A DNA stretch of 64,000 bases from Lactarius indigo. Lineage: Eukaryota; Basidiomycota; Agaricomycetes; Russulales; Russulaceae. The notes beneath the pieces were generated by a model. It saw only the letters and a program-made list of their open reading frames with translations, was not told the DNA's origin and did no database searches. Position numbers and translations under genes: made by a program. Below are positions 956 to 19,982 of the stretch, piece by piece. Within the stretch, counting starts at the first letter, position 1, and every line of letters starts with the position of its first letter. The DNA is taken from NCBI GenBank assembly GCA_025766275.1, contig JAFKAC010000184.1, positions 16,208-80,207 on the forward strand. Reading direction: 5' to 3'.

Positions 956-1021
956 ACATAATGGCGCAAGTTAGTGACAATGTGTATGTAAAAGCCCATG
1001 TGCATATAGACCTTACAGGTT

Positions 1022-2700
1022 GTTGAAACCCATGTGGGCCCATCAAGCAAGAGTGAGCATATATCATGAGTGGGCCCATGGATAGAACTGCCAAGATAAA
1101 TGAATGGGCCAATTGTAGTAGCTGGGAAGTTTTGTCAATAGTATACAGTGGGCCCATGGTTAAACTCATTGAGAGCTGCCAAACACATTGAGTGGGCCCA
1201 CAATCAAGGCATAGTATAAATTGACCTATTACATTGGTGAAACCACATGGGCCCATGGATCGAACTGCCGAGATAAATGGATGGGCCAATTGGCACAGCT
1301 AGGAAGAGTTGTCAATATATTAGAATGGGCCCATTGTTGAGCCTACAAAGACCTGCCAAACATCTTGAGTGGGCCCATGATCAGGCAGGGTGTAAATTGA
1401 CCTATTACATTGGTAAAACCACATGGGCCCATCAAGTAAGAGGGGCATATATCATGAGTGGGCCCATGGATCAAACTGCCAAGATAAATGGACAGGCCAA
1501 TTGGCACAGCTAGGAAGAGTTGTCAATATATTAGAATGGGCCCATTGTTGAGCCCACAGAGAGCTGCCGAACATCTTGAGTGGGCCCATGATCAGGCAGG
1601 GTGTAAATTGACCTATTACATTGGTGAAACCACATGGGCCCATCAAGCAAGAGTGGGCATATGTGATGAGTGGGCCCATGGATAGAACTGCCAAGATAAA
1701 TGGATGGGCCAATTGGCACAGCTAGGAAGAGTTGTCAATATATTAGAATGGGCCCATTGTTGAGCCCACAGAGAGCTGCCGAACATCTTGAGTGGGCCCA
1801 TGATCAGGCAGGGTGTAAATTGACCTATTACATTGGTGAAACCACGCAGGCCCATCAAGCAAGAGTGGGCATATGTGATGAGTGGGCCCATGGATAGAAC
1901 TGCCAAGATAAATGGATGGGCCAATTGGCACAGCCAGGAAGAGTTGTCAATATATTAGAATGGGCCCATTGTTGAGCCCACAGAGAGCTGCCGAACATCT
2001 TGAGTGGGCCCACGATCAGGCAGGGTGTAAATTGACCTATTACATTGTTGAACCCACATGGCCCCATCAAGCAAGAGTGGGCATATATCATGATTGGGCC
2101 CATGGATAAAACTGCTGAAATAAATGGATGGGCCAATTGGCACAGCTAGGAAGAGTTGTCAATAGTTTAGAGTAGGCCTGCGGTTGAACTCATCGAGAGC
2201 TGCCGAACAACTTGAGTGGGCCCATGATCTAGACATAGTGTAAATGGACCTATTACATCGATCAACCCTCGTGGGCCCATCAAGTAGCAGTGGGCATATA
2301 TCATGAGTGGGCCCATGGATAGAACCGCTGGCATAAAAGGATGGGCCATGGACACTGATTGGAAAAACTGCCGAGATAAACGAATGGGCCAATTGGCACA
2401 GCTTAGAAGAGTTGTCAATAATTTAGAGTGGGCCTGGGTTGAACTCATTGAAAGCTGCCGAACACATTGAACAGACCCACGATCTAGTAATAGTGTAAAT
2501 AGACCAATTACATAGGTAAAACCCATGTGGGCCCATCAAGTAACAGCTGGTATATATCATTAGTGGGCCCATTGATAGAGCTGCCGAATAGCTCAGATTG
2601 GCCATGGACACTGATTGGCAAAACTGCTGAGATAAATGGGTGGGCCAATGGCCATAGTCGTGAATTGCTGTTGATGGTTTGCAGTTGGCCTAGAATTGAA
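1022..2700. repeat. Left subterminal tandem array of the KDZ element, unit about 212 bp
   Basis: Four well-preserved units start near 1277, 1488, 1700 and 1912 (period 211-212 bp), with diverged units on both sides to about 2700. Each unit contains several TGGGCCCA palindromes, the phrase AACTGCCAAGATAAATG, a TTGACCTATTACAT block, and in most units AGCTGCCGAA (1562, 1774, 1986, 2198, 2453, 2579). Open frames that cross the units on both strands are artefacts of the period not introducing stops. Confidence 0.9.
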
Positions 2701-2988
2701 TCACAGAGAGCTACCAACCATCCTCACTGGGACTACTTAAGCCCTACAATGTTCCTGCAAATAATACCGACGGTCCCAAATGGCCTCTACATCACCCTCA
2801 TAGCACCTTTACTGAGTATCTTACATTGTGCTGGTGTCCTTTTTGGAGATCCCGACTTTGTCATTTGAGTTGCCCATTATCCTTTATCATATCAACCAGC
2901 AATCTCTTCTGGGTGTACTTAAATTGCATCTGAATCAAGGCTGCTATATGCGTACTATTTAAGTATTCGACACCGCTATATAATGTTC

Positions 2989-3943
2989 TACGCCTCAATA
3001 TTGTCCAGCTCATCTACCATAGCGTCTACAACCTCACTCAAAGCAATCTCCCTCTCATAAATCCGCCAAGCTTGGACGTAGATCCGCCGAAGTCTTACAG
3101 CTTCGGCACGTAAGATCGACACCCGAGTTCCCAGGTCGTACTCTTCTTGCTAGAAAGAAACAATGGTCAGTTTTCACTATGCTAGGTTGACAATGTGGCG
3201 CACCAGCTCTGAAGGTGCTTCCTCCTGACTGACCTCACCTTCCTTTATCTCAGAGTTGCTGGGAGATGGGGCACGATCACCCCAATTCCAAGCTGTGCAC
3301 ACAGAGTTAGAGACATATATAATCAGTAGAAATGAGACTTACTGCGAGCTGCCGAATGGCTGCCGAAGGTCTCTCTGGCCTCGGTAGGTAGAGAGACGCC
3401 TGTCCCAGATCTTTCCTCCTGTGTTGGCACTGGGTCAATGCTGGGTTGTTGAGTCCCTAGAACCAGTGGGGCTTCCATCCTCGACGCAGGGTCAGTCCCC
3501 TGATCTTGGATGTCAGGTGAGGTCGGCATATCCTTGCCGAAGTTGTCTTGAGATTCTGGTGAAGGCAGCTTGTCCACACCAAAGTTGCGTTGTCCATGCG
3601 AAGAGGGTGACAAGGGTGACCCATCCCTGCCAAGATTGTGTTGGCGTTGGGGGGATGGTGACATATCCATGCCGAAACTATGTCGGCGTTGAGGAGAGGG
3701 TGACCCACCCATGCCGAAACTGTATTGGTGTTGAGGGGATGACAACCCACTCATACCGAAGCTGCGTTGACTTTGAGGGGAGGGTGACCCATCCATGCCA
3801 AAGCTGTGTTGGCTTCGTGGAGAGGGCGACCCATCCATGCCAAAATCGTCTTGACCTTTGGCAGATAATGGCGCATCTCTTCCGGTCACAAGCTGCCGAG
3901 TGTCAACCGATAGTGCAAGAAAAGGGCGAGACATAGCTAGCAA
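2989..3943 (-). CDS. Unrecognised KDZ-element protein with FGMDGSPSP repeats
   Basis: The first exon (3943 to about 3345; the second Met at 3934 is an alternative start) encodes a low-complexity protein built on an imperfect 12-14 residue repeat of the type FGMDGSPSPQSQ, present about nine times. Two introns follow (about 3285-3343 and 3150-3205), and the last exon ends at a TAG at 2989-2991 after a helical, Arg/Glu-rich segment (LRAEAVRLRRIYVQAWR, IYEREIAL) that could form a coiled coil. It is divergent from the Cys-cluster gene at 4179, sharing a 235-bp promoter with a CGGCAGCT site at 4091. No domain is recognised. It may be a structural or DNA-organising protein of the element; that is a guess. 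Confidence 0.7.
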
Positions 3944-4178
3944 AGAAGTGGGACAGTTTGATGAGGCGGTGATAAGGGAGACTCAATGCGGAATGAGCCT
4001 ATATATCTAGATTGCTTATTACGCAAGAGACACTCAAGATTCATTACTGTTTTTTGCTGAGTCAGGTTCCAGATTCCAGATCGGTAGTTTCGGCAGCTCG
4101 GCAGCATGCCGCTTGTTGACCTCGCTTCAATGTGGCAACGTAAACTGCCAACACACTTTTTTCTTACCCACCAACGCC
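3944..4178. promoter_or_regulatory. Divergent promoter of the KDZ element with CGGCAGCT site
   Basis: This is the only spacer between the minus-strand gene at 2989-3943 and the plus-strand gene at 4179. It contains CGGCAGCT at 4091-4098 followed at once by CGGCAGCATGCCG, 81 bp upstream of the plus-strand start. Promoter function is inferred from position. Confidence 0.5.
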
Positions 4179-5793
4179 ATGAATTCCCTCCTCCATATCA
4201 CCGCTAGGGTTGAGGCCGCTGTTGCAAGCTATGTCAGCGTTTGCGATGTTGCTGACAGGGCTGAATGGGAACGCCGCTTTGAGGAAGAGAAGGTACGTAC
4301 TTAATTCAATTGCAGTTTCCATCCAATCCCCATTTGAACTAGGTCCTCATGACGCGAGAGTTCAGGAGGCTCCGGCGAAATTCGGGGGACCTGCCAGCGC
4401 TACACCCAACGCTAGCCACCTTGTATATCGTCCTCGATGCCAAGGGGGATTTGTCAGACATCGGCAGGGGGCACCCTTCAATTAACAAGCACAAATATTA
4501 CCTGCCCAGTGCCAAATTCCCCGCCGACATCTCGCACCTATTGCCTCCAAATGAGGGCCGCTGGTGGGAGCACCTTGGTAAGTCACTGTTCACCTTTCCC
4601 TCAAACACAGTCTAAACCTCCACAGCTGCCAAGCATGGGGATGGGGGGGTGCCCGCTGGAAATGCAGCACCAAGTCCTACACCGCCACCACCACCACCAC
4701 CTTCACCTCCTCGTCGGCACCTGCCGAAGGTGACGCTCATCATGGGCCCACCTCCTGAAGACTCAGAAGACGAGATGGAGGTAGACCAGCTGGAGGAGGT
4801 GAGCAATAATACTTCCCCATTTACGTTTTGTTTCTGATTAACTCCATAAGTCCCCTGAGCCTCCCTCAATCCACAAGAAGGGAAAGAAGAAGGCAGCTGG
4901 TTCGGCAGCTACCTCGAGGAAGCGCAAGCTTACTTCACCACCGCCGCGCCGTTCCAAGAAGCGGAATGTGCCAGTCCGACTCCCTCCCAAAGTGATAGGA
5001 GACGAGTTGGAGAGTGAGGACGACGACGACGACGAGTATGAATTTTCGGTGCGTAGTTATATATTTTCATTAAGATTCGGCTGAAAGAACTTGGTGATAG
5101 TGTGAAAGATGCATCAAGGCCAATGTGCACTGCGAGCCACAGCCGACAGCTCCCTGCTTGCGCTGCCAAAGCAGCAAGGTGGGGTGCAGCTTGATGCCGC
5201 CAAACTCGAAGACAGGCAAGACCGATCGGCGCCACCTGAAGCCGGAAGTGGTGTGCAGGTACCGCATCGCTCAGTACAAGGTGCGGGAAGGAAAGCAGCC
5301 CGCAGCTGCATACAGGAAGACGTCGGAGGCGTCAGACTCGGCAGCATCAGCCTCAAGGTTGGTTGAGGGGCTGACGCTGTACAGCACGTCATCCAACGCA
5401 GCGTCTCCAGCTTCGCTGGCCCCCACGGCGCCTGACTCTCCCACCTCTCCCAACCCCTCTGCCACCGACACCACTGCCACCGCTACCGCCGCTGCAGCTG
5501 CCGGTCCCTCCGCTCCTGCTGCAGCTGCCGGTGCTGCCGATGCCACCCCCGCGATCACTCCCTCCCTCCGTCGGCGCTTGCAACCTGCACGACGCCTTGT
5601 GCCAGTTGTGGAGGTGCCAATGCCCTCACACTTGGTTCTGTCATCCTCTCGGCAGCGTTCTGGGGTTTCGGCAGCTCAAGCACCTCAGGAAGTTCCTGAG
5701 CACAACTCTGCCGAAAGGATCCAACACCTGGAGATGAGGTTGGCGGATGTCGAGGAGAAATTGGAGGTGTTGATGAAAGGCGGTGGGGCATAA
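4179..5793 (+). CDS. KDZ-element protein with Cys cluster, basic region and C-terminal coiled coil
   Basis: The gene starts at MNSLLHIT and has five or six short exons: 4179-4291, about 4343-4578 (MTREFRRLRR, INKHKYYLPS, EGRWWEHL), a Pro-rich exon, an exon with a Lys/Arg-rich probable nuclear signal (KKGKKKAAG, SRKRKLT, RRSKKRNV) and an acidic run, and the final exon from about 5107 to the TAA at 5791. The final exon opens with a CIKANVHC...PCLRCQSSKVGC cluster, resembling half-degenerate Zn(II)2-Cys6 binuclear clusters of fungal DNA-binding proteins. It is followed by an Ala/Pro/Thr-rich linker and a predicted coiled coil (RIQHLEMRLADVEEKLEVL). It is the best candidate in the element for a sequence-specific DNA-binding protein. 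Zinc binding and DNA binding are inferred, not shown. Confidence 0.7.
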
Positions 5794-5949
5794 AAGGCTG
5801 ATTAGGCCTTCATGTTTTCTGTTTCATCAAGTATAAGTTTTTGCAACACATCTGTATATCGACTACGACGAATGGACAATAGATACTACAATGAGGACTT
5901 GTGATACCATGAATTAGAGAGTGGATGGAGAAAGGTGATACAAAGACTG

Positions 5950-8335
5950 CTAGCGACGCGCTCTCTTCCTAGAATACATATTGCTACCCCTATTGGGAAC
6001 TTCAGGTTCTAGATACAACAAAGAAGTCATTACTTACTGCGTTTGCTTGACCCGCTCTGTAGGCCGTGTTGAACACCCTGAGCGCCGAGTCTCAGGCTGT
6101 GCATTTATGGTGGGGTTGCTGACTTTTTGACGCTTGGGGGGACGAGTATCGGCAGCTGTGTCGGGAACTGGTCTATGAGTGGTAGATGCCTCGGCAGCTT
6201 GATCCGCCCTTGAGCTTCCTGTTGTAGAGTGGCGTTGTGTGATAATGCGAGGGCGAGGGCGAGTGTGAGGGGGTGCAGCGTTGGGTGGGTGCGGAGATGG
6301 ATCTCGATCTCCCTGTCCCAGCTCCTCACACACCTCGGCACCATTTCCATGCCTTTGGCTGCTGGTGCTGTGGTGAGGGTGAGGCTTAAGGTGCGGAAAA
6401 AGATGGTAAGCATCTCCCATCAACACAAGGAGCTTACTTACATCGCTTGGACCCCCAGCGCTGTCTTCTTGGCCATTACCGTCAGCCCCCTCTTTGGTTA
6501 GAGCATTTCCATCTCCAGGGGTTTCTTCATCATTTCCTTGTGCCTGACGCCCCCAGACATCTCTCATCTTGAAACGGAATGGGATCTCGCCGGCAGCTTG
6601 CCTTTGCGTCCAGTGTTTGAGCAATGCATTGACATCCTCTTGGCGAATGTGATGGTACTGAGTGAGCGTAACACCGGCCGGCAGGTACTTGGAAAGGATG
6701 AAGTCACCTGGGGTCTCTTTCAGTCTGGCCCATGGGATTCTGCCCTTTCCCCCGCCCACGGCAATCTCTGATAAGTTCATAAGTGATAGGTCTACTACAA
6801 GCTGTAGCTCACTTACTGTACGTCTCGCCCATGAACCTGCCGATGAGGTACTTCCTGTACATGAGACCCTCGCGTTCGATGGCTTCCCATCTCGGCAGCA
6901 TGGGATACCCATTCTTGTCTATCACCAGCTTGATAATTGGCGTTGCATCCTTCCCTTTTCCCTCCTCTTCGCTGTCATTGCTAGCATGGACTCCTATAAA
7001 GGTGCCGCATTAGCACACTTCCCTTGAAGCAAAATAGACTCCCACCAAAGGACTCGGCAGTCCATCTTGAGAAGTCCTCGACCATTGGGTCCCTCTGCCA
7101 GTCTTTGTGTCGCGATTTGAAGGACGTTCCACCCAATTCGTTATTGATGTCATGGCTAGGTAATAGGTCGCTAGATTGTAAGTAGATAGAATTTGATACT
7201 CACAACATGATCGCCGGTTCGCCATCACTGTCGCAGTAGCCTGCTAATATGGCAACCCGTACACCATATTGGCGGTACATGGACTCAGAAAAATCTCGCA
7301 TGGTGTTGATACCATGTTTCCCAAACATCCTTGATAGGACTTAGTTACTTCCCACACGATAGAGTGCTTGGCATGCACGTACCGCTGCTGCTGCCGAGGG
7401 GGAGCCTGTTGCTCTGTCCATTTCTTCGCCTCCGCTCTGTACTTCACCCATGTATGTTCATCTAATCTCTGGCTGATCACCTTGATGGACTTTTTGTAGC
7501 AACCAAGGTAGGCTGCCGATCCCCGCTTCGACCCAGACATTTCGAGAGCCATCTTGTCAAGTTCCTTTCGGTGAACATCAACCAAAATGTCGTGATATGT
7601 CCATTTTCTGTGACAAAACTGGCATCGTCTTCGCTCCCGTCGGCACCTGTTATAAAGGAATCGGCGTACAAACTACGAAATATGAGAGCGGTGCAACATT
7701 GTTGAGGCTAAAGCAAACATACCATTTCTACGCCATCTCTATTGAAGCCCACGCCTTGTCACCAACTTTTCTTGATGCTGTCAACGGAAACTTGGATGAT
7801 TTTGGACCGAGAATCTGGGTCGGCAGCTCGGAATGCAGCAATGTGCCTCTGCAATATGTCGGTTTGTTCATCTGTTAGTTCAATACTCTGGCTTGAGTGT
7901 GAAGCAATGTCAATGGAGGGCGTCTGTGTAAACAACAAGTGTACCCACCTCGCTTGACCCATACTATCACTTTCTTCGTTTCCGGGAGCTACACCCTCTT
8001 GAGTGACCATGTCTAGATCGCCAGGTGCGATCGAATCCCTGTCCAAGGTCACATTTTAGCAGTCATACATTAGACCAGAATACACACCTCTCATTTTCTG
8101 TGCTACCTCCCTCCTCATCATCGGTAGGAACGCCCCTTCGAGCGATGACATGTAAATCACCAGAGATGATTGACACCCTATCGAAAGATAAATCTGAGCA
8201 GTTAGACTGCAGGCAAAAATTGTAGTCGCTGTCATCAGGGTCTTCAGAGTCTGAAGACTCAATGCCTGGCCCTTTGCGCTCAACCTCTTTGGTAGGCTTG
8301 GTAGGCTTTTTCATTTGTTTGCTGGTGTTCGGCAT
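5950..8335 (-). CDS. Large multi-exon KDZ-element protein of unknown function
   Basis: The gene starts at 8335 (MPNTSKQMKKPTKP, a Lys-rich start followed by an acidic stretch) and is spliced through about ten exons to a basic end QKRARR at 5950-5952. Recognisable coding blocks include DEQTDILQRHIAAFRAADP, MALEMSGSKRGSAAYLG, WEV-type block near 7340, YRQYGVRVAILAGYCDSDG (7218-7310), HDINNELGGTSFKSRHKDW (7080-7150), IIKLVIDKNGYPMLPRW (6890-6960) and GRIPWARLKETPGDFI (6640-6770), then a Pro/Thr-rich tail. The order of globular blocks suggests a real conserved protein, but I cannot name a domain. It is divergent from the TET/JBP gene with 184 bp between start codons, suggesting joint regulation. 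Exon borders are by eye. Confidence 0.65.
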
Positions 8336-8519
8336 CGGGAAGGTAGGTTTTTCAAGAGGGATAGACTTAAGGTCTAAAGGTTCGGCAGCTTTAAGGCATT
8401 ATATCACGTGCCAACTTGTGCTCGGCAGCGTGGGATTGTTTATCGGGAGCTCAACTCCCACGGAATCCGCATGTATCGGCAGCTAATCATCTTCATTCAA
8501 GTCCCTTGACGCTGAGGAA
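8336..8519. promoter_or_regulatory. Divergent promoter of TET/JBP and its neighbour, with two CGGCAGCT sites
   Basis: CGGCAGCT occurs at 8393-8400 (58 bp from the minus-strand start) and 8477-8484 (36 bp from the plus-strand start), with a further CGGCAGCG near 8421. Shared regulation is an inference. Confidence 0.55.
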
Positions 8520-9814
8520 ATGCAGGCTTTCCAGCTCCCTCAGACGTGCACACTCTCCCCCCTGAGTCTGTCCCATCTCTGTGCCGAATACCTCCGTGCT
8601 CAGTTCCAATACAAGTTAAACCAGCGCTCCTCTCAGCCAATCAGCGTTGCTAAGGCACCACGAGCTCCCTTGATGCTGCCGGTGCCTCTAATTTCAGAGC
8701 TGGATCGAATTGCACTCACTCTGGTGGATGCATTCATGAACCGTGGTTAGTGACACAGACTGGGCACTCAGACATATATCCTGAGACAATCCAAGCAGTG
8801 CAGATAAACTGGGATATTACACGTTATGCAGATAAGCTCCCAATGAAGCCAAACAATCCAGGAACCCAGGTGTCCAAGCAGAAAGAGGCCAGCCTGAAGA
8901 GGCAATATCCTCCGCTGGAGGGTACGGCAGCTGCCCTTACCATTTCAAGGCCCTGCATTGTCATTGACAACCAAGGAATGATATTGGCATGGCATCTTCC
9001 TGGAATCTTGAATGATTCTCGGCAGGTAAGTTTACTCACCTTGTCCGATCACCGCATCAAATATAATGTATTTTAGGGTGAAATGATGGCAGCAACAGAG
9101 AAGCTACATTTTTTGTTGAGCAAGCATCAAAGTAGCACATCTTGGCGTGTTGATCCAGAAATATTTCCTTCAGGGCTAGAGGGCCTTCAGGGGGTGATCA
9201 ACATATCACCTGCATGGTTCCAACAAGGACATGAGGTGAATTTTCTCTACCAGTAATGTTTTATCATTCAGCAGCTGATTTCAATTGAGATGGTACAACC
9301 ACACCCCCAGGTCGGTGCGGCTTTGAGAAAGCCAGCTGTCTTGGACTGGCTAGATTGCATCACTCAATCCAATTCAATATTGAGTGCAATCCTGGCTGTC
9401 ATTCATCCGGAGCTTTATAATACCGGTCAGGATACCTTCAAACGGCTAAGAGAATGTGCCGAGATCCAGCCACAGGATGTCCTCCGTCAATGGACATCCG
9501 TTTTCAACGGCGTCTCTGTCATTTGTAATCGCCTCACGCCGCCACATCGGGACGGAAATTCCAGGAAACAATGGTATGATTTGCTGGCGTCTGTTGGGCG
9601 CTACCGAAATTGCAATTTGAGGCTGCCGGGAATTGGACTCTCGCTGGAGTATGGTCCTGGTTCAGTAGTTGGCCTGTTAGGGGGGACGCTGGAGCATGAA
9701 GTGCACAATTTTGAAGGAGAAAGAGTATGCTACGCATACTTCATGAGGGATAGAGTACATGAGTGGGCAGGGGTTCCAGGGAATTCTTGGATGAACATAG
9801 CCCACTATCAGTAA
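8520..9814 (+). CDS. TET/JBP-family 2-oxoglutarate/Fe(II) dioxygenase, fungal KDZ-linked type (apparent frameshift near 8747)
   Basis: The catalytic exon 9287-9814 carries the double-stranded beta-helix signature: the iron-binding HxD in TPPHRDG, the strand LRLPGIGLSLEYGPGSVVG, the distal iron His in LEHEVHNF and the 2-oxoglutarate Arg in GERVCYAYFMRDRVHEW. Enzymes of this family oxidise 5-methylcytosine or thymine bases in DNA; in mushrooms they are expanded together with KDZ transposons. Upstream exons are 8520-8750, 8751-9025 and 9077-9235. The first ends NRG at a TAG (8748-8750), while the coding frame continues one base out of phase (LVTQTGHSDIYPE). No intron of usable length explains this, so a 1-bp deletion or a sequence error is likely. 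If real, the N-terminus is lost but the catalytic domain could still be made from a later start. Confidence 0.85.
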
Positions 9815-11076
9815 CATAGCGACTGTCAAAGCTTTCTCCTATATATCTTTTCTTGACTTAGCAAGGCCAGAATTCGATACCACTAGCAATGGGAATCAGT
9901 GTAATAGGGCATGGCTATTATGGTATATCTATGATTTCGGCAGCTCACTGTCGGTGCAAGGTTTCACAAATATAAAGAAATATTGTTATTTTTGCGGCAG
10001 CTCACCAAACGTCTTGAACAGAAATGGTGATCCATAGTAAATTACAATCCCTCTCTATGAAAAATCTCTCTCAGCTCCCTCTCCTGAGCTGCCAGACAAC
10101 ACTCTATTTGGGGCATTACCAATGACATCTCATTCATTGGCTAGCTACTAACATCAGACCTGGGTGATGCTATGATATAGGGAAGATGTAGTTTCTGGAT
10201 CTTCCTCCTTAACAGATACCCTTATCGCTGCAGGATCTGAGCTCTACACTGCTAGGAAACTACATCAGCATATTTGGGCATACCCCCCATGGCGGATCCA
10301 TGGCTTCGGTAGCTCATTTGTTAGTACGATATTTTGCAGATACAACATTATATTGTTTTTCGGTAGATCAGTAAATGTCTCTGGAGCGATAATTCCTGGT
10401 AATTGTCCCTCAGCCAAGTCAAACTGTTTGCCATCTTAATGGGGTGTACTCATGTCACACTCCTAGAGACCATACTATCGAGCCTTGTCTCAATCACAAG
10501 AGAAATATCTTGTTTTTTGTCAAGACAGACGGCATCTGTGTTATCTCTGTGTTATATTGCCGAGGCTGCCGAGATGGTAATATGGTCTAGTACACTTTCG
10601 GTAGCTACCAATCAACCAAATGGTAGAAACCCTAAAATAATGACAGACACTGCTGCCAGGTACCTTGAGAAGGCACACTTTTGCATAAACAGAACTGTTG
10701 ACCCCAAATTTGTGCTTCACAGTTGAGGATGAACGAAGCAACATGCTATCAAAGGGTATCTCATGTCATATACAATAGATAAAATATGTGCTACATGAGA
10801 GAACAGCCTGAAGTGGTTTAAGTAGTTGCCGATAGTAGTGTAAGTGACCACAGGTCCAGTCCAGTCCAGTTTAACAGCACAAAGTGGTTTGATTGGCTGC
10901 CAAACCTGGTTTATCTAAGCTACCGACAGTAGCGTGAGTGACCACAGGTCAAGTCCGGACCGCAAAATCCACAGACGCAATACCCAGCCAGCCAAAGCTG
11001 CCGACAGGTTAATTGGAGGCGCTGCTTCTTCAGGGACATATACTGCAACACACGACACATCCATTCTTAGTTTCCC
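9815..11076. other. Gene-free spacer inside the KDZ element
   Basis: No convincing coding exon is seen in 1.26 kb. The spacer holds CGGCAGCT at 9938, 9995 and 10996 (the last 74 bp before the KDZ transposase start), one-mismatch copies CGGTAGCT near 10308 and 10604, and a diverged tandem duplication of about 95 bp (around 10820-10866 and 10915-10960, sharing GTGACCACAGGTC). Confidence 0.6.
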
Positions 11077-14000
11077 ATGGCACGCAAGGGTGTGAAGGCA
11101 TCCAAATTCCTCCACAGAAAGTCTAAGGCTAAGGTGATTGAGTGGGTGTCCCGAGAAGGCTCCCGAGGAACCAGAAATATCCCGGTAGAAGTAGGCACCT
11201 CAACAAATCTGCCGACACCAAGACAAGATGCTGGCAGAATGGAGATAGACAACCATGGGGCAATATTGGATGAAACCGACCCTGTGTCCATGGATGTTGA
11301 TGAGACAATCTGGATAGAGGAGCCATTCATACCTGAACAGACGAGAGTGGGTTTGCATCCATGCCCTTCTCCAATAGTATTTTACATGTTCTCCCAGTCC
11401 CAGCACATATACATGGAAGAATTTATTCCTAGGATTGGCCCCTACTTGCGTTGCCTCCTCAACTCTGAGGGTGTCCCAGCTATGACAATGTGCCAGGGCT
11501 GCATGTCTGCCCCATTTGAGTGGAGATGTACCGACTGCTTCCCTGCTCTGGTGCTCTGCAAGGAGTGCTGCCGAAAATCACATAACCGGCTTCCGTTCCA
11601 CAGGGTTCAGAAGTGGACAGGGAAATACTTCATGCCGTCGTGGTTGCGGGAGGTTGGGATATGCTTGCGTCTTGGGCACTCTGGGGATTTGTGCCCAATT
11701 CAAAGTGTGCGTTGCCAACCCTTTTATTTTTTAAATCTCATTCCAAAAAATACAGTCACAGAGGTGCTATGATGCTGACGAAGACTGCCAGGTCGGTAGC
11801 CACAGAGAGTATCATGCAGCTGCCGACCTTGGCTTCGACAGTCCAAAACCTGGGTGTCATGATAAAGAGGGAAATCAAATAATAACTGTCATTGATAGGT
11901 CTGGAATCCACGAGATTGGCGTCAGCTGGTGCTTCTGCCCTGAAGCTCCCGAGCACGACATGCAGTTGATGATGGCAGGGCTCTTTCCAGCCACATTTCA
12001 CAACCCAAAGACAGCATTTACCTTCCGGGTGCTAGAAGACTTCCATTTGGACAATCTTGAATGCAAGACGACTCCAAGCCAATTTTTCAGTTGCCTAAGG
12101 AGACTCACAAATGATGAGTTTCCAAATTCAGTGCCGGTAAGAGAACTTAGCACATCTGCCGATAGCAGACTAATCGGCAGCTTTAGGACCGATATCGGGA
12201 GCTGCTGAGGGTCTCCCGGCAGTGGAGAGTACTCATTTCCCGGAAGAGATTCGGTTTCGGGTATGGGGAGAATGAAGAACAGAAGCCGGGATCAACAGCT
12301 ATATTCTGTGCTTTGTGTGCACAACCTGGAATCAACCTCCCCGAGGATTGGAGAGAGTTTGAAAATAGGTGTGTCAATAGTCTTCGGTACCTAGTAACTG
12401 CCGACATATTACTTTAGCAAAACCCTTTTCATGCGGGGCTTCATGATGGATGGGAACTTCCAGGCAGAGCACATGAAGATGAGGAATCCCGAGAATGACA
12501 TTCCACTCTCTGAAGGTACAGGATTCATGGTCAGTCAAAAGTCATATGAATTGCACCTGAAATCGGCAGTTGAGAGGCGGCAGGTAAGCACTATCTCTGG
12601 TATTTCGGCAGGGGAGGGTTGACACTTGAGCAGAGATCGACATGCCATGACCACCGTGCAGTAAATAATGTAAACAAGCACGGCGGACACCTTGAATCGA
12701 CTGGAATTGGTGCCACTGCGTGCATTCATGGGGCTTTTGTGCCCGATTCTGTTGTTGACTTTCAAAAGGGAGAAGCGTGAGTTCTTATATCTATCTGCAT
12801 ACAATGAGTGAAAATCAACCCTCCAAAAGCCAGAAGAATATGGACTATTCCATATTCAAGGCCCTAAACTTCAATATGGAGGGGATAGAGGCCGCCCTCA
12901 TCTGCTATGATGTCATGTGTCAATGGAGTGTTCATATGAAGGAGAGGGTTATCGGCAGCAACTATCTCAAACTTCCTGACAGCCTGGAGCTCAGGTTGGG
13001 CATTGGTCTTTTTCATATCCATGGGCATCAAGATACCTGCCTAGCTAGGTATTCGCCCAGCTTCATCAAAGGAGGCCGACAAATAGATGGCGAGACCATC
13101 GAAACACTTTGGGCTCCACTCAATGAGATCTCCAGAAGTACGAGGGGGATGTCAACATCGCATCGCAGGGAGGTCATAGATGACCATATGAATGACTCAA
13201 ATTGGAAGAAGCTTATTGACCTAGGCAAGTTCCCTCCTACAGATACCACATCAGTGCTTACGTGGGTTGGGTAGTCAATGCTGTGTCTAGACGCTACCGA
13301 AAGGCACTTTCGGGAGCCACAATCAGCACGGCAGCATTTGAGTCCATAAATGTATTGGCAAGTACGGAGAGTGTTGAGGCTTGGAGCGCCGAAGAGGAGT
13401 ATGCACAAAGGGAGCGAGGTCATGACGTCAAAGTCATGGACATCTATGACATCAAGAGGAAACAATGTGGGTACAATTACTCTATGATATGTTTGCCTGA
13501 CATCAGGTTTCAGTCCCATCGCGTGCAGAGATACTTCTTGAATTGACACAGAAGGAGACTGAGGGCTCTAGCCATAAGGGACATGCTGTATGGCTTAGCA
13601 GTGGATTGAAGATTCAGGAGTCACAGTAGGATTCTCGGCACCTTCTCCAGTGAGACATCTGATCGTGATTTCACAAAAAACATAGGTTATCCCTTCAAGC
13701 ACTGGTGAGGAAGATTGGATCCCATCCAACACCAGATCAACAGAGGGATATTACCTTGAAGCGTGCCCGACTCCAAGAAAGAGTTGACGCATTCCAAAAG
13801 CAGGCAGCTAACATTCTTCAAGACCCCCACGACAGCGGAGATGACTACTGGGACAATGCCCCAAGAAGAGAAACCTATATTGGTGTAGAATTTGATGGCA
13901 CTGATGAAGGAGAAGACGATGAGGATTGCACTTCATCTGCCGAAGAACATGATCAAATGGAGTTTCCAGGAAATTGCTCTACCAATGGCAGTGTGGATGC

Positions 14001-14820
14001 AGAGTATATCTTGTTGCATCTTCCTTCACATCTTGGACGTGACTGGTGTGATGGAAATTCTGCCGAAGCCCTGGCGAAGGCAGAAATACATCTACGGGAG
14101 GGACAACTGAACGATTCCCTACATCACATTCGCATCTCCCTAGGCCACAAATCTTATCTGTTCAGACAGGATGTTCGTCCGGCACGTACACAAAGACTCA
14201 AAACACACGCTTGGGCAGAAGTACATGCTGCCGAGTCAACAGTTCAGCATCATGCCCGGGTGTATATTCGTGCCCGGCAGGCAATGGTAAACCTTGGAGC
14301 CGGCACCTCTCTCCTTGATCGATACAAAGTCTTGAGGCGCCAGGACTTGAGTGTCAAGACAAGTGTAATTGCCCCTCATGTACGTGGCCAGCGGAATAAA
14401 TCATTGCCCTGGTTTTGGACAATGGACATTCAGAGAGATGCCGACATTGGGGAATGGATGGAAGACTGTGCGTAGCTCTCTGTTCACACACACTCAAACA
14501 ATATAACGCTCTATACAGTCTACCGAGTACATTGGCTTCGGGCAAAAGCTCAAAAGATGCGATGGATAGAAGAACTTCAGTGTCTTCAAGTTGAGATGGA
14601 GTCCGCTGTCAGGTTTTTTAGGCATCAAGAGCAATTTTGGCAAGCAAAGCAGGAGCTCCTTGAGCCCCAGTCACAGTCAGGGCATGCTGCGTGGGCAGCC
14701 AAACAGAGTGCAATGTGGTGCTCGATGGCTATTCAGGCAGAGTCCAGGTTTACTGCTTTACTCAGGAGTAATCCGCCTCCTGAGTTTGCTAAAGTTCTAC
14801 GGCTGCAACCAAGTAGATGA
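11077..14820 (+). CDS. KDZ transposase with N-terminal CxC2-like cysteine cluster
   Basis: The gene starts at MARKGVKASKFLHRK and is spliced through about ten exons to a TGA at 14818. Near residues 145-200 lies the cysteine cluster (MCQGCMSAPFEWRCTDC, LCKECCRKSH, HSGDLCP) known as CxC2, which is associated with KDZ transposases. The catalytic part follows: DGNFQAEHMKMRNPE (12453-12500), CIHGAFVPD, LICYDVMCQW with a likely catalytic Asp, GIGLFHIHGHQDTC, and DGETIETLWAPLN with a likely catalytic Glu. The C-terminal region ends with the family-typical VYRVHWLRAKAQKMRW and a helical tail. It would cut and reinsert the element, generating the 8-bp duplications seen at its borders. A CGGCAGCT site lies 74 bp upstream. 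Exon joins were judged by eye and some may be wrong, but no clear disabling mutation was found. Confidence 0.9.
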
Positions 14821-14935
14821 GTTTAATAACTTTCGCATAGCGCTGCCGATTAGCTATCGGTAGTCAGTGGGAGCTTAAAACTACAATTCCTTTAGAAATA
14901 AATCTGTTTCATTCCCTCATTTACAATTAGGCCTG

Positions 14936-15211
14936 CTATATAGTCTCCAACGGAAAGTCAGAGTTATCTCTATAAAGGGAAACAGATTGGATGTTTTGCT
15001 TCACTGCAGCTAGCCATGAGTCACCGGTAGGTGTTTGTGGCTTGGGCTGCCGGTGGAGGGTCTCTGCTAACGACATTCTATTAGCACATAGCTGGCGGGA
15101 GGGCTGCCGATATATGGGCTTGTGACAGGCATGTGCCACAGGCATTTCCTCACACAAGCAACAGAAACTTCAAATGGAGATGTCTCGGAGTCATGTGCAT
15201 GATGCAGCATG
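14936..15211 (-). CDS. Possible small KDZ-element gene
   Basis: A minus-strand start at 15211 opens MLHHAHDSETSPFEVSVAC and a second open block (MSLAETLHRQPKPQTPTGD, LAAVKQNIQSVSLYRD) runs to a TAG at 14936. A clean splice joining them could not be fixed. It would be divergent from the gene at 15319, with a CGGCAGCT site at 15245 between them. Nothing is recognised in it, and it may not be a gene. Confidence 0.3.
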
Positions 15212-15318
15212 GGCGTATACTCACTTAAGATCATCAGCACTCATCGGCAGCTCCCGAAGGCAGCTTCTTAAGCATAGAGATTCCATTCCATTTGCACATC
15301 AATTCACATCCGCATACC

Positions 15319-15996
15319 ATGTCCACTGAAATCGGCACCTCCATACTAGACGCTGCACTCGCCTACATTGGCCAGAGAATATCCATTATCCTTCTCAAAC
15401 CTGCCGATATTGACAAAAACTATATCGGCAGCTTACACAAGGAAGTGGTAAGCATTACTCAATGTGCTAGGAATATCTTTTCACCAGAAATTGGACTTAG
15501 CTTGCTGCTGTATGGATTATTGGCCTTCTGTCGTCTAGCGGCAGCTCCCCTCAAGTGCCAGAGTCGGTCAGGATTGCCTTTCGTGGGTTTTCAGACATTA
15601 GGAACCCAGGGTCCTATATGGCTCCCGAAGCAAACCAGCAGCTAGAGGGAATGTTCCAGGCAGCTGGCATTCCTCAATTTAATTTTACAGAGTGGTGGAA
15701 ATTTGAAGGGGAGACAATGAAAGAACCATTCGATGTCCGTGAGGAGGTAGTAGTGGGGTTGCTGCGTGCTCTAGAGATGGTATGTACCTCGTTTCATTTA
15801 CTGATCCACAAATTAACCAGTGCTGTAGCAGGAAGCTAGCACGCAACTTCGCGCTAGAATAGTAGGGAAATTCAAAGAAGCACAGGAACTGGTCAAGGAA
15901 ATTGAGAACCAGGTTAATTCCCTTTACGATATGATCTCCAATGGTTTTGAGAGTCTTGAGGGAGAGGCCTCTCGTTTGGAAGAAAACATGGGTTAA
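15319..15996 (+). CDS. Small unrecognised KDZ-element protein with C-terminal coiled coil
   Basis: Three exons can be followed: 15319-15447 (MSTEIGTSILDAALAY, LLKPADIDKNYIGSL), about 15547-15778 (VRIAFRGFSDIRNPGSYM, FNFTEWWKFEGETMKEPFD), and about 15829-15996 (RARIVGKFKEAQELVKEIE, then a heptad-like stretch ending EENMG). The protein is about 170 residues. The final exon is helical and charged, consistent with a coiled coil. A CGGCAGCT site lies 67 bp upstream of the start, and two more lie within the gene. No family is recognised. Confidence 0.6.
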
Positions 15997-16031
15997 TGAG
16001 AATTATATTTCTATGTCTTCGTGAAAATCAA

Positions 16032-16530
16032 CTACAGTTTTCCATCCCCCCCTGCTAAGACATCTACCAAAACCATCTCATTTTCCAAATCACTCAAAAG
16101 GTCTTCCAATTTTTCTTTCCTTATCACCTTCCACTTTTTCAGGAAGCCAGCATTAGATCTGGCTTTTGAAAGCCATTCCGCAGAAACACCCTTTGGAGGG
16201 TCCTGTGTTGTGTTAGCTTCGGCAGATCAGATGACATTCCAAATCACCTTATCTATGAGCTTTTGAATCACAGGTTGTAAGAGCACCACATTTTTTGGGA
16301 CCTCACTAAAACCTCCGTTGGAGGGCCCTGTCATTTCCCTCTGATGTCGACCTGCATCAGAATCTGTTTCACTGAGGAATGAAACACCCTTCCAGAATTC
16401 AGAGCGCATCTACAGGCATTGGTTTAGTGCCCTGGTTAGGCATTAGTTTGATCCACACACTGCCTCCTTAAAGTTGTTCTCCTCTAACTCAGAGACATGC
16501 TTTTGTATCTCTGAATCGTTTCCCTGCATG
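16032..16530 (-). CDS. Small unrecognised KDZ-element protein
   Basis: Three minus-strand exons join in frame with canonical borders: 16530-16464 (MQGNDSEIQKHVSELEENN), 16410-16246 (MRSEFWKGVSFLSE, then LLQPVIQKLIDK) and 16200-16032 (DPPKGVSAEWLSKARSNA, LKKWKVIRKEKLEDLLSDLE). The protein is about 130 residues, charged and largely helical. It is divergent from the gene at 17156; the 625-bp spacer contains the 41-bp repeat array. No domain is recognised. Confidence 0.55.
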
Positions 16531-16555
16531 GTAGATGGAAGCATGTTTCAGCGAC

Positions 16556-16990
16556 ACAATCAGGTGCTGCCGATAAGCTCGCAGTGACCCAATAAGTTTC
16601 TGCCGATAAACTTACAATGGCCCAATCAGGTGCCGCCGATAAGCTCGCGGTGGCCTATCAGTTGCTGCCCATAAACCTGTTGCTGCTGATCAAGTTGCAG
16701 TGGCCCAATCAAGTGCTACCGATAAAATTACAATGGCCCAATCAGGTGCTGCCGATAAACTTGCACCAGCCTAATTAGGTGATGCCGATAAACTTTGCGG
16801 TAGCCCAATAGCCCAATCAGGTGCTGCCGATAAGCTCATGGCAGCCTAATCAGATAATGGCCATAAGCTTGCCATGGCCCAATCAGCAACTTTTGATATA
16901 TTTGGAATGGTCCAGTCAGGTGCTACCAATAAGCTTGTAGCAGCCTACCCGGTGATGCAATAAACTCATAGCTGCCCAATCAGACGCTGC
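16556..16990. repeat. Degenerate 41-bp tandem array in a divergent spacer of the KDZ element
   Basis: About ten imperfect units follow the pattern CAATCAGGTGCTGCCGATAA plus GCTYGCAGTGGCC, at a spacing close to 41 bp. Each unit carries a GCTGCCGATAA word, related to the AGCTGCCG word found across the element. The array sits between the start codons at 16530 (minus) and 17156 (plus), so it may act as a promoter-binding cluster. Confidence 0.8.
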
Positions 16991-17155
16991 TAGGAGAAAT
17001 GCTGTGATGGCCTGTATTATATACCCACACTAGCTGCCGACAGAACCTGAACGCTCTGATAGGACAGTTGACAATATATCTGCATGGGCCATGATTACAG
17101 ACCTGCATATGCGCTCTGTACTGCCTCCCCCTGGATCTACTACCAGCTCTATTCC

Positions 17156-18542
17156 ATGTCAACATCCATGCTCGGTCTAACCAAAGATGAACAAACTCTT
17201 CACCACCATGCCGCTATGCTCAAAAATGGGCTAGAAGCATACCGCACATGCACACACCAAGATGAAATAAAGTGGAAGAATTTATTGAGAGCACGCTTGG
17301 TATCCTAGTGTGCTTTCCATCTGCTTCTACAAGCTAAGCTCAGATATTTCTAGAGAGAATCGATGAACTATTTTGTTGATGCGAATACAAGAAGTCCCAC
17401 ACCTCCCCGTGTTCACCCACTCCTATTGAGCCTTGCTTTGATGTTCAACGAGTCTGAAACCTCCCTGAACATGAGAGCTGTCTCTGAGGATAATCCAAAG
17501 GTGTTAAGTAGCAACTATTATACTTCACCCAAAGATCTTCCACCGCTGGACATACATCTACCTGGTCAAAATGGTACGGTACTGTTCTCTGATGTTCATG
17601 GGTCTCTACTTACATCGGCAGCTTCCTGTGGCGAATGTATGGTACCTAAGCTTCAAGAAGGTTCGGCGATGGTAAGCAATGTAGCAATGAGTATCCCGTC
17701 GGCAGCTTCCGTTCTGGAATCTATGGCACCTGAACCTCAAGACGATTCAACAGAGGTTGACCATTCAATAGTCACTATTCCTAGCAATGGGAAGAAGCAG
17801 CAGTGTGCTGCTGGTGGCGGTCTTCGGAGTGAGTCCCATATTTTATCCCACAGATGCACTGAGAAATAAAATTGCTGCCGAAGAAATTGTCACAAGATCG
17901 GCAGAAAAACAGAAAGCTGCCGATGACTGTACTAAAGCAATCACCGGTACTATGCCAAAGAGACAAGATAATGGAAACGTAAGTGATTGGATTGAAACAT
18001 AAAGCTGGCCCAAAGATCCAAGATCTATTATTCCTGCAGGTTCTACACGACACTCCAAATACCTGTAGTTCAAAGGTAGCTAGGCTACGAGATAAAGCCA
18101 AGGGTAAGATGGCTAAGCACACAAACCCGCCAAAGGGAGATGGGCCAAATGTCAGGGACGAGGGGAAGCAGTCCAAGACAGTGTTTATAAAGGACAAGCC
18201 TTCGCCCCAAGAAGAGAATGCCAATGAAAGCAGGGAGGAAGGCAATGAGCCAGCAATCTCATGTGTGTTCACTGAAGTTTACATCTGGTTTTACACTCAT
18301 CGTGCATACTGTCAGTTCGAGGCGAAGACAACAATAGTGTCGTCAGAGACCTAGAAAAAGAGGTCCAGGCTCTGAAAAGTAGATGCGAGGGGCAAGACAA
18401 GATGATTGAGGACCTGAAATCGAGATGTGAGACACATGAGAGGGTCCTTGAGATGCTTCGGCAGGAAATTGTGCAGCTTCATGACGGCCAGAAGACTCTA
18501 AATACCATGTATGATGGAAAGAGCTATGATCTCATGCCATAA
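17156..18542 (+). CDS. KDZ-element coiled-coil protein
   Basis: Exons can be joined from MSTSMLGLTKDEQTLHHHA (17156-17308) through about 17360-17826, 17850-17980 and 18042-18270 to a last exon from about 18315 to the TAA at 18540. The middle is Ser/Pro-rich with repeated CMVPKLQ/SMAPEPQ-like phrases, followed by a Lys/Ala-rich helix (NKIAAEEIVTRSAEKQKAA). The last exon encodes a strong heptad pattern (VVRDLEKEVQALKSRCE, MIEDLKSRCETHERVLEML). A CGGCAGCT site lies at 17032, 117 bp upstream, and others at 17615 and 17700 lie in the coding region. No family is recognised. Confidence 0.6.
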
Positions 18543-18603
18543 CTATAGTTCAAGTAGACCCTGTGGCTATTGCGAGTGTAATCAGGTTCATCAGCATCAA
18601 TCA

Positions 18604-19910
18604 TACATGCCGATTATGGGCCCACACGAGATATATGTTCGGCAGCCGTCGCTACCTACTGTGGGCCATTACGAGCTAATCAGCAGTAGCACAAATGCCT
18701 TCCTATGGGCCCAGACATGTATATTGTCAGATGCATGATAGGTTGAATTGGGCCAATGCGAGCTCATCGGCAGAATATACAAGTGGCCATCGTAGGCCAA
18801 TACAAGCTAGTTGGCAGAATACGCACATGGCTGCCATGGGCCCACACGAGATATATGTTCGGCAGCCGTCGCTACCTACTGCAGGCCATTACGAGCTAAT
18901 TGGCAGTAGCACAAATGCCTTCCTATGGGCCCAGACATGTATATTGTCAGATGCATGATAGGTTGAATTGGGCCAATGCGAGCTCATCGGCAGAATATAC
19001 AAGTGGCCATCGTAGGCCAATACAAGCTAGTTGGCAGAATACGCACATGGCTGCCATGGGCCCACACGAGATATATGCTCGGCAGCCGTCGCTACCTACT
19101 GCGGGCCATTACGAGCTAATTGGCAGTAGCACAAATGCCTTCCTATGGGCCCAGACATGTATATTGTCAGATGCATGATAGGTTGAATTGGGCCAATGCG
19201 AGCTCATCGGCAGAATATACAAGTGGCCATCGTAGGCCAATACAAGCTAGTTGGCAGAATATGCACATGGCTGCCATGGGCCCACACGAGATATATGTTC
19301 GGCAGCTGTCACTACCTACTGCGGGCCATTACGAGCTAATTGGCAGTAGCACAAATGCCTTCCTATGGGCCCAGACATGTATATTGTCAGATGCATGATA
19401 GGTTGAATTGGGCCAATGCGAGCTCATCGGCAGAATATACAAGTGACCATCGTAGGCCAATACAAGCTAGTTGGCAGAATATACACATGGCTGCCATGGG
19501 CCCACACGAGATATATGTTCGGCAGCTGTCGCCACCTGCTATGGGCCATCACAATATCATCGGCAACAGCACAAGCTTGGTCTTATGTGCACATCGTCGG
19601 CCTACACAAAGCTCTTGTTCGGCAGCTTTCCTGCTTGCCCTGGGCCATTACAATTGCATCGGCAGCAGCAAATGCCAGTCCTATGGGCCCATACGTGTAT
19701 ATTGTCAATGACATTGCAATTTAATTCTGGGCCAATACAAGCTCATTGCCAGATACCCCCCATTTGTCCTGGGCCTATACATGGACCTTGTGCAGTTTCC
19801 CTATATGTGTTTGGTTGGCCCATACGATGCCTATACAGAATACATATTCATGGGCCCATACATCTATATGCGCTTAAGTCACACAATGGGCCCATGTGGG
19901 CTTTGCCGAT
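18604..19910. repeat. Right subterminal tandem array of the KDZ element, unit 220 bp
   Basis: Nearly identical units repeat every 220 bp (comparable points at 18680, 18900, 19120 and 19340), followed by diverged units to about 19910. Each unit holds ATGGGCCCACACGAG, TTCGGCAGCCGTCGC or TTCGGCAGCTGTC, ATGGGCCCAGACATG and CGGCAGAATATACA. The GGCAGC word is on the opposite strand relative to the left array, so the two ends are mirror images in this respect. Open frames over the units are repeat artefacts. Confidence 0.9.
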
Positions 19911-19974
19911 GCGCTCGTGAAATTGTCACGTGGGCTCTGCCGAGTACAATGACCCAAATCTGCGTCATGGGCTC

Positions 19975-19982
19975 GCACCTTC
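19975..19982. repeat. Right 8-bp target-site duplication of the KDZ element
   Basis: GCACCTTC matches 948-955 exactly and lies at the point where the minus-strand frame of the interrupted accessory gene resumes. Confidence 0.85.

What the first reader, a model, noticed from the sequence alone, without database searches (positions are those of the whole stretch)
956..19974. An 8-bp word, CGGCAGCT, marks the whole KDZ element
By eye I find about 34 exact copies of CGGCAGCT/AGCTGCCG between 956 and 19974 (for example 4091, 8393, 8477, 9938, 10996, 12175, 15245, 17032, 19300, plus six in the left array). With equal base frequencies about 0.6 would be expected on both strands. I noticed one copy (38669) in the remaining 45 kb. 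Copies sit in coding, intronic and intergenic DNA and stop at the element borders. A word kept against drift across a whole transposon implies recognition by an element-encoded protein. The nearest known parallel is the VANC proteins of Arabidopsis VANDAL transposons, which bind short words dispersed in their own element and counteract silencing. Here the same element encodes a TET/JBP base oxidase, and the word contains a CpG, so a fungal, self-directed demethylation or anti-silencing system is a reasonable hypothesis.
Basis: partly seen in the sequence, partly recalled or inferred. Interest (0 to 1): 0.92.

Follow-up and report, generated by a model that had tools for sequence, protein, structure and literature searches.

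The report
Transposons stamped with family-specific DNA words
A family of large mushroom transposons carries a short DNA word every few hundred bases along its whole length, related families carry different words, and each encodes its own zinc-cluster protein that probably reads the word, much as some plant transposons recognise and un-silence themselves.

Summary
CGGCAGCT occurs 35 times in 956-19974 and once in the rest of the window. The true core is TCGGCAG(C): 39 TCGGCAGC in the 15.9-kb body, shuffles mean 0.46, maximum 4. It is family-specific: a 77%-identical relative (B) shares it. Family D carries CTCGGAC(G); families G and H carry the gapped dyad CGG-N5-CCG (26 sites each, shuffle means 0.84 and 0.53). 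All are in one genome, Lactarius indigo. Words are selected: word CpGs are kept between A and B 52/69 versus 248/596 elsewhere. In G/H the two triplets are conserved while the spacer is not. Copies within A and within B lose word CpGs at the ordinary rate, so this is not mutational shielding. Each of the six families sampled encodes its own Zn2Cys6-like protein, the protein type whose classical site is a CGG dyad; the sixth (E) has no clear word. In A and B the cluster fits Pfam Zn_clus best with its halves swapped. TET/JBP is not the common factor: it is near 33 of 39 A/B KDZ genes, 0 of 80 in D, E, F, G, H. Binding and anti-silencing remain inferred.

The parts
956..19974 (.). KDZ (Kyakuja-type) transposon, family A
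   Evidence: identical 8-mer GCACCTTC at 948-955 and 19975-19982 as candidate target-site duplication (7-bp reading GCACCTT also possible); CpG o/e 0.55 against 0.93 in the 44 kb after it; KDZ, CxC2 and Tet_JBP domains inside
1563..19666 (.). span of the 52 exact TCGGCAGC words (both strands): 1563, 1775, 1987, 2199, 2454, 2580, 3348 ... 19299, 19519, 19619, 19659
   Evidence: full list; counts and controls
1060..2660 (.). left tandem array (177/212/256-bp units) rich in end word TGGGCCCAT, also carrying 6 CGGCAGCT
18616..19549 (.). right tandem array (220-bp units) with end word and TCGGCAG
4179..5793 (+). gene for a Zn2Cys6-like protein (annotated relatives about 474 aa; five exons by my reading), candidate reader of the word
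   Evidence: assembled query 96% identical over 100% of its length to annotated L. indigo protein P0001; homologue in family B
5101..5187 (+). cysteine cluster CERC-x6-C-x7-CLRC-x6-C
   Evidence: Pfam Zn_clus matched best in swapped half order; weak fold match to Gal4/Leu3/Ppr1
6037..8398 (-). conserved gene of unknown function
   Evidence: 40-67% aa identity to B in open frames of this strand; 27-29% similarity in E, G, H; no Pfam match above cut-off
8487..9814 (+). TET/JBP dioxygenase gene (Tet_JBP domain in 9290-9814)
   Evidence: PF12851, 66.6 bits, cut-off 34.9; that the open frames upstream, conserved with B, are its exons is inferred
11077..14811 (+). KDZ transposase gene with CxC2 (about 11828-12115) and KDZ (12816-13202) domains
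   Evidence: PF18803 93.5 bits; PF18758 110.4 bits; conserved open frames against B

Best explanation
The word is the binding site of the element's own Zn2Cys6-like protein (4179-5793). Each KDZ family sampled encodes a version of this protein with an N-terminal domain, an acidic/basic linker, a two-part cysteine cluster and (by eye in A and G) a coiled coil. Five of six families sprinkle a matching CGG-containing word along their whole length, about one per 0.3-0.5 kb in A, G and H; in A it lies in exons as well as outside them. The protein would coat and mark its own family's DNA. Most likely this keeps the element open against methylation-based silencing; in families A and B the element's TET/JBP oxidase could act as a local effector. 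Shown here: the words, their family specificity, selection on the A/B and G/H words, the matching cluster genes, and CpG decay typical of methylated DNA. Inferred: that this protein binds this word (about 0.65), and that the purpose is anti-silencing rather than transcription or transposition (about 0.4-0.45).
For: Words: TCGGCAGC 52 in A and 56 in the B neighbourhood; CTCGGAC 71 in the D neighbourhood, 12 against shuffle mean 0.87 with arrays cut; CGG-N5-CCG 26 each in G and H against 0.84 and 0.53. Words stop at borders that I set from the conserved right-end segments: G 26 inside, 0 in the 7.65 kb beyond; D 70 inside, 1 beyond. Genome places: 40 of the 100 listed CGGGAnnTCCGC places lie within 15 kb of a G or H KDZ gene (about 1.3% of the genome), 0 near A, 0 near B, 1 near D. 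Selection: TCGGCAG 22 shared, 14 A-only, 11 B-only, against 46/148/194 for 299 permuted words, one-sided p=1.7e-5; word CpGs kept 52/69 versus 248/596 (A/B) and 33/39 versus 53/110 (G/H); G/H identity CGG 0.94/0.92/1.00, spacer 0.75-0.81, CCG 1.00/0.92/0.94. No mutational shield: A 14/184 versus 180/1675, B 16/156 versus 150/1452 word versus other CpGs mutated among copies. Cluster genes in all six families sampled, Zn2Cys6-like spacing; the more similar clusters go with the same word (A/B, G/H). CGG-N5-CCG is the architecture of classical dimeric Zn2Cys6 sites (recalled; Gal4, Ppr1 and Leu3 are the weak fold matches). End word and body word are distinct.
Against: No binding, expression or methylation data. 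Family E has a cluster gene but only a weak, post hoc, CGG-free candidate word; its best gapped dyad (z 6.5) is within the control range (best controls 7.6 and 6.3). Pfam Zn_clus is sub-threshold for full annotated proteins in native order (P0001 11.4 bits, cut-off 21; P0013 and P0019 no hit), and the G cluster gives no Zn_clus match in either order, although G/H has the most Zn2Cys6-like word. The fold match is weak (Gal4 at E 2.2, probability 0.16, rmsd 17.3 A over the whole alignment). G/H exact-site conservation (7 of 10 versus 35 of 84 control dyads) is not strong alone. D's word lies largely in tandem arrays, and its conservation was not tested. CpG shortage is not special to these elements: the mostly unrelated J stretch has o/e 0.45. 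Families were sampled by one element each (six families, three distinct strong words).
Confidence: 0.55

Rival explanations
1. The KDZ transposase (through its CxC2 cysteine cluster) or a transposase complex binds the body word, to load or compact the element for transposition.
For: CxC2 domain present in A (93.5 bits); KDZ genes define all these families; other DNA transposons carry subterminal transposase sites (recalled).
Against: A separate end-concentrated word GGCCCAT (37 left, 17 right, 4 body) already fits end recognition, and GGCCCAT also occurs in the last 300 bases of D (2) and E (3), though not G (0), while the body words differ. G/H's CGG-N5-CCG has the form of a Zn2Cys6 dimer site (recalled).
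Confidence: 0.2
2. The cluster protein is an ordinary activator of the element's own genes; the dispersed words are enhancer-like sites or have accumulated around several promoters.
For: Most characterised Zn2Cys6 proteins are transcription factors (recalled); the element has several genes, so promoters are spread out.
Against: Words are about as dense in coding-like as other DNA (30 in 8969 bp, 27 in 6931 bp) and no 1-kb bin of 15 lacks one.
Confidence: 0.15
3. A host zinc-cluster protein binds the word (host silencing, or a host factor exploited by the element).
For: Fungal genomes encode many Zn2Cys6 proteins (recalled).
Against: Words differ between families in one genome, and families with similar element-encoded clusters share a word; sites for a host silencer should be lost, not kept.
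Confidence: 0.06
4. The word is a neutral relic of an old minisatellite or of biased composition or mutation.
For: Tandem arrays containing the word exist at the ends and at 16549-16795; D's word is largely in arrays.
Against: 42 of 52 TCGGCAGC copies count as non-redundant by their flanks; lineage-specific words at aligned positions where the other element has none; word bases conserved above flanks between families but not shielded within families.
Confidence: 0.04

Closest known systems
VANC/VANDAL anti-silencing system of Arabidopsis (PMC5735166, PMC10398659)
   Same: Element families carry short motifs specific to their own family (YAGTATTAY for VANC21, AGTTGTCC and AGTTGTAC for VANC6), related families have different motifs, tandem repeats carry part of them; methylated host DNA is the setting.
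   Different: Unrelated protein (Zn2Cys6-like, not DUF1985/DUF287), KDZ instead of VANDAL (Mutator-like, recalled) transposons, fungus instead of plant; words in coding-like as well as other DNA; binding and demethylation shown for VANC, not here.
TET/JBP-encoding Kyakuja transposons of Agaricomycetes (PMC12730594)
   Same: KDZ transposase plus TET/JBP gene, 7-bp duplication reported there (7 or 8 bp here).
   Different: The main text of that paper has 0 occurrences of 'zinc' and 'VANC' and speculates that mushroom TET/JBP acts without target specificity; here a candidate targeting protein and target word are found, also in KDZ families without TET/JBP nearby. Right end here is not TG.
Zn2Cys6 (Gal4-type) binuclear cluster proteins, PF00172
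   Same: Six cysteines with nearly the right spacing, CGG-containing sites, CGG-N5-CCG dyad in G/H, probable coiled coil; weak best fold matches are Gal4, Ppr1, Leu3.
   Different: In A and B the halves match the profile better in swapped order; encoded by a transposon; sites lie throughout the encoding element.
Subterminal transposase-binding repeats of DNA transposons such as En/Spm or Ac (recalled)
   Same: The end word GGCCCAT in arrays at both ends resembles them.
   Different: The body word is spread over the whole element and differs between families.

Membership tests
VANC-like anti-silencing system | short motif strongly enriched in the element family over the genome | tested here: met
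VANC-like anti-silencing system | related families have different motifs | tested here: met
   A/B TCGGCAGC, D CTCGGAC, G/H CGG-N5-CCG
VANC-like anti-silencing system | motifs mainly in non-coding DNA and tandem repeats | tested here: not met
   3.34 per kb coding-like, 3.90 per kb other in the A body; D is closer to this pattern, with many copies in arrays
VANC-like anti-silencing system | VANC protein homology (DUF1985/DUF287) | tested here: not met
   no such Pfam match in P0001, P0013, P0019, P0023, P0029, P0017 at E up to 10
VANC-like anti-silencing system | element protein binds the motif and causes loss of methylation | not testable with these tools
   needs EMSA/ChIP and bisulfite data
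Zn2Cys6 binuclear cluster (PF00172) | C-x2-C-x6-C-x5..12-C-x2-C-x6..8-C (pattern recalled) | tested here: met
   A, B, E as stated; D, G, H have seven residues in the first long gap, so are near matches
Zn2Cys6 binuclear cluster (PF00172) | Pfam score above cut-off in native order | tested here: not met
   full proteins: P0001 11.4 bits, P0013 and P0019 no hit; isolated A core 21.3 against 21 but as two partial stretches, B core 18.5, D core 15.4, H core none
Zn2Cys6 binuclear cluster (PF00172) | Pfam score above cut-off with halves swapped | tested here: inconclusive
   A 29.2 and B 23.6 above 21; D 16.8, H 12.2, E 7.9 below; G none; 0 of 10 shuffled controls passed, run on the duplicated form only
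Zn2Cys6 binuclear cluster (PF00172) | fold | tested here: inconclusive
KDZ / Kyakuja transposon | KDZ transposase domain and CxC cluster | tested here: met
   PF18758, PF18803 CxC2
KDZ / Kyakuja transposon | 7-bp target-site duplication with 5'-CA..TG-3' ends | tested here: inconclusive
   7/8-bp identical flanks at 948-955 and 19975-19982; left end CA in the 7-bp reading, right end ..CTC, not TG
KDZ / Kyakuja transposon | TET/JBP gene (of TET-bearing Kyakuja) | tested here: met
   PF12851 66.6 bits; in D, E, F, G, H relatives 0 of 80

The most novel reading that the evidence does not exclude
KDZ transposons of mushrooms run a self-recognition system unrelated by descent to plant VANC: each family encodes a half-swapped Zn2Cys6 protein that coats its own DNA through a family-specific word kept every few hundred bases, and protein and word change together as families split. 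In the A/B lineage a captured TET/JBP oxidase is steered to the element's own CpGs by this protein, giving programmable, self-directed base oxidation.
Probability: 0.33. Interest if true: 0.94.

Novelty: new variant of a known kind. Interest (0 to 1): 0.82.

Why it matters
How transposons overcome methylation-based silencing is known in molecular detail for very few elements, VANDAL of Arabidopsis being the main one (recalled). An independent solution in fungi, with a compact zinc-cluster reader and at least three word types in one genome, would show that element-wide self-marking is a recurring strategy. It makes the open question of how transposon-encoded TET/JBP enzymes find targets directly testable with a 30-aa domain and 8-12-bp probes. 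If the swapped zinc cluster is real, it is also an unusual arrangement of a very common fungal DNA-binding domain.

Tried and rejected
Rejected: (1) 'CGGCAGCT is a chance or composition effect'. (2) 'The word needs TET/JBP': D, G, H have words without it nearby. (3) I first took the KDZ gene at C262:59 kb (J, L070) for a separate family without cluster and without word, that is, a negative control (note); one search showed a truncated A-type fragment with an insert of about 730 bp and unrelated upstream DNA, so it is no control and is not counted. (4) EM motif refinement ran too permissive and was not used. (5) Spacing regularity: not different from random in A and G, borderline in H (P lower 0.039). 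(6) Family E: candidate GGAAGTGA/GGAAATAA 11 against 0.91, chosen after looking, so inconclusive. (7) AlphaFold of the full G protein was poor (mean pLDDT 41.9) and was not searched; it only suggests a helical N-terminus and a long helix at 372-407. (8) PDB sequence search with the D cluster: nothing up to E 10. (9) In the first copy comparison reverse-strand loci were misoriented; it was repeated and only that is used; there one A locus more than 15% from the majority sequence (L044) was dropped from the mutation counts, leaving 17 of 18, and 12 of 12 B loci were kept. (10) Whole-protein Pfam scores of the duplicated clusters add up several stretches and overstate the case; the single-copy scores are the ones to use, and no shuffled control was run for those. 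(11) The B neighbourhood also holds 17 CGTCCGAG, probably from a neighbouring D-type element, since its last 1.5 kb is 95% identical to D. KDZ family labels come from open-frame length: I assigned 119 of 175 matches, a few fragments among them by place; the listing was cut, so counts are lower bounds. For one search an earlier list was used (A 20, B 18, D 18, G 24, H 15). Papers: PMC5735166 abstract and sections 5 (part 1), 9, 10; PMC10398659 abstract; PMC12730594 abstract, sections 19, 26 and passages; PMC8889193 passages; PMC12810828 passages; PMC7473861 search listing only; the 2014 PNAS report of KDZ and TET/JBP in fungi is recalled, not held and not seen. 'Not in print' rests on searches and the look inside one paper; none would show a paper outside that library.
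Full report
OBSERVATION. CGGCAGCT/AGCTGCCG occurs 35 times in 956-19974 and once (38669) in the rest of the window. Tandem arrays contribute only part of this: with arrays removed 27 remain in 15.9 kb. The better core is TCGGCAG followed by C (52 of 77 copies) and then often T (29 of 52). TCGGCAGC is the top 8-mer of the element, 52 copies, 42 of them non-redundant by their flanks, 39 in the body against a shuffle mean of 0.46 and maximum of 4, and 0 in the 44 kb that follow. Two control 20-kb stretches of the window had no ungapped word of comparable strength (best z 5.4 and 5.2 against 36.6). Both strands are used equally, 39 and 38 for TCGGCAG.

ANATOMY. The element is flanked by GCACCTTC on both sides. 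It encodes, left to right, a cysteine-cluster protein (4179-5793), an unknown minus-strand gene (6037-8398), TET/JBP (8487-9814) and the KDZ transposase with CxC2 (11077-14811). Two words divide the element: GGCCCAT is packed into the ends (37 left, 17 right, 4 in the body), TCGGCAG is everywhere (8, 12, 57). In the body TCGGCAG is about as dense in open frames conserved with B as elsewhere (30 in 8969 bp, 27 in 6931 bp).

SPECIES. The cysteine-cluster protein is 96% identical to an annotated Lactarius indigo hypothetical protein (P0001), and a contig length given for other hits (302280) equals that of G000 contig C262. The genome is 90.3 Mb. It holds 175 KDZ-domain matches, a lower bound.

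OTHER FAMILIES. I fetched one element neighbourhood each for B (C50), D (C215), E (C90), G (C67), H (C201) and one that proved to be a truncated A fragment (J, C262). B shares TCGGCAGC (56 in 20 kb). D has no TCGGCAGC but 45 GTCCGAGA and 41 CGTCCGAG, that is CTCGGAC, 71 in all; many lie in short-period arrays, but with arrays cut 12 remain against 0.87. G showed nothing above background with ungapped words, but a gapped scan found CGG-N5-CCG (fuller form GCGGAnnTCCCG), 26 sites against shuffle mean 0.84. H, fetched afterwards, has the same dyad, 26 sites in 10 kb against 0.53. E is weak: its best gapped dyad has z 6.5 where the controls reach 7.6 and 6.3. Words stop where the element seems to stop (borders set by me from the conserved right-end segments): G 26 inside and 0 in the next 7.65 kb; D 70 and 1. 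Across the genome, 40 of the first 100 listed CGGGAnnTCCGC places lie within 15 kb of a G or H KDZ gene, 0 of 100 near A, 0 near B, 1 near D; the genome total is 166+183 against 67+94 for the reversed pattern. CTCGGACG totals 1973+2172 against 1510+1450, a smaller excess.

SELECTION. A and B align over 9.77 kb at 77%. There TCGGCAG is shared at 22 places, A-only at 14, B-only at 11; for 299 permuted CG-containing words the figures are 46, 148 and 194 (one-sided p=1.7e-5). So words are kept more often than other words, and some are present in one lineage where the other has none. CpGs inside words are kept 52/69 against 248/596 outside; in G/H 33/39 against 53/110 (both directions pooled, so the p-values there are somewhat optimistic). 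In G/H the two triplets are 92-100% identical while the 5-base spacer (75-81%) is at flank level (few sites, 11 distinct): a footprint of a protein that touches two CGG triplets. The elements are CpG-poor (o/e 0.52-0.73 in the A element and the B, D, E, G, H stretches, some with flanks, against 0.93 in host DNA of the window) with excess TpG/CpA, as expected of methylated DNA; the mostly unrelated J stretch is as poor (0.45), so this is not special to these elements. Among copies within A and within B, word CpGs decay like others (14/184 against 180/1675; 16/156 against 150/1452), so the word is not merely protected from mutation. No such tests were made for D's word.

CANDIDATE READER. Each of the six families has a cluster C-x2-C-x6/7-C-x7..12-C-x2-C-x6-C, preceded by further conserved exons with an acidic/basic linker (annotated hypothetical proteins P0001, P0013, P0019). 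The A and G proteins have heptad-like segments after the cluster by eye, and there is a long helix at 372-407 in a low-confidence model of P0019. The cluster resembles Zn2Cys6 of Gal4 type: a model of the A cluster has Gal4 as its only Foldseek match (E 2.2, probability 0.16) and Ppr1, Leu3, Gal4 and Pho7 as the second-look matches listed; none of these scores is strong. Pfam Zn_clus matches the halves in the wrong order (A residues 1-12 to profile 20-31, B 1-13 to 20-32, D 23-35 to 2-14; none for E, G, H). Put in swapped order, single clusters match over nearly the whole profile: A 29.2, B 23.6 (cut-off 21), D 16.8, H 12.2, E 7.9, G none; native order gives A 21.3 and B 18.5 as two partial stretches, D 15.4 partial, H none (E and G native cores were not in that call). 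Ten Cys-fixed shuffles of the duplicated form gave none above cut-off (best 11.9). I read this as a half-swapped Zn2Cys6 cluster, likely but not proven, and least supported in G.

TET/JBP IS AN ADD-ON.

MECHANISM. Best reading: the cluster protein binds words along its own element and marks or opens it, an anti-silencing role by analogy with VANC, whose motifs are likewise short and family-specific and whose binding goes with hypomethylation (PMC5735166). Differences from VANC: no protein homology, words in coding-like DNA. Rivals are transposase loading, ordinary gene activation, a host factor, and neutral relics, with evidence in their sections. The steps 'protein binds word' and 'binding counters silencing' are inferred.

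NOVELTY. In the searches made I saw no listed paper on a zinc-cluster protein or dispersed words in KDZ elements, going by titles and abstract openings; the 2025 paper on TET-bearing Kyakuja has no occurrence of zinc or VANC and speculates on non-specific TET action in mushrooms. I call it a new variant of a known kind: VANC-like self-marking, in another kingdom, with another protein.

Noticed in passing
window 1060-2660 and 18616-19549: End arrays with palindromic TGGGCCCA and ATGGGCCC (37 and 45 in the element, 1 and 1 outside); GGCCCAT also occurs near the right ends of D and E. Probably transposase end sites.
   Followed up: partly
window 6037-8398 (-): Conserved gene of unknown function, with distant similarity in E, G and H elements and no Pfam match above cut-off.
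   Followed up: partly
L031-L060: 15 of 18 A copies differ by 0.7% or less from their majority sequence over 3.4 kb, so the family moved recently; CpG transitions are the largest class in B copies (156 of 448).
   Followed up: partly
G000:C112:436940-437368: The best-scoring Tet_JBP match of the genome lies more than 12 kb from any listed A/B KDZ gene (as do 3 others of 39); possibly a host or orphan TET.
   Followed up: no
G000:C11:143975-150830: Five TCGGCAGCT within 7 kb without a listed A/B KDZ gene on that contig (the list was cut); candidate non-autonomous or broken copy that kept its words.
   Followed up: no
L070 8001-10000: Truncated A-type KDZ (95-98% identical) split by an insert of about 730 bp.
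   Followed up: partly
window 3613-3860 and 16549-16795: Short tandem repeats inside the element (42/84-bp; 33-bp units containing TGCTGCCGATAA), possible nurseries of new words.
   Followed up: no
window 22977-23308: Five 66-bp tandem copies outside the element.
   Followed up: no
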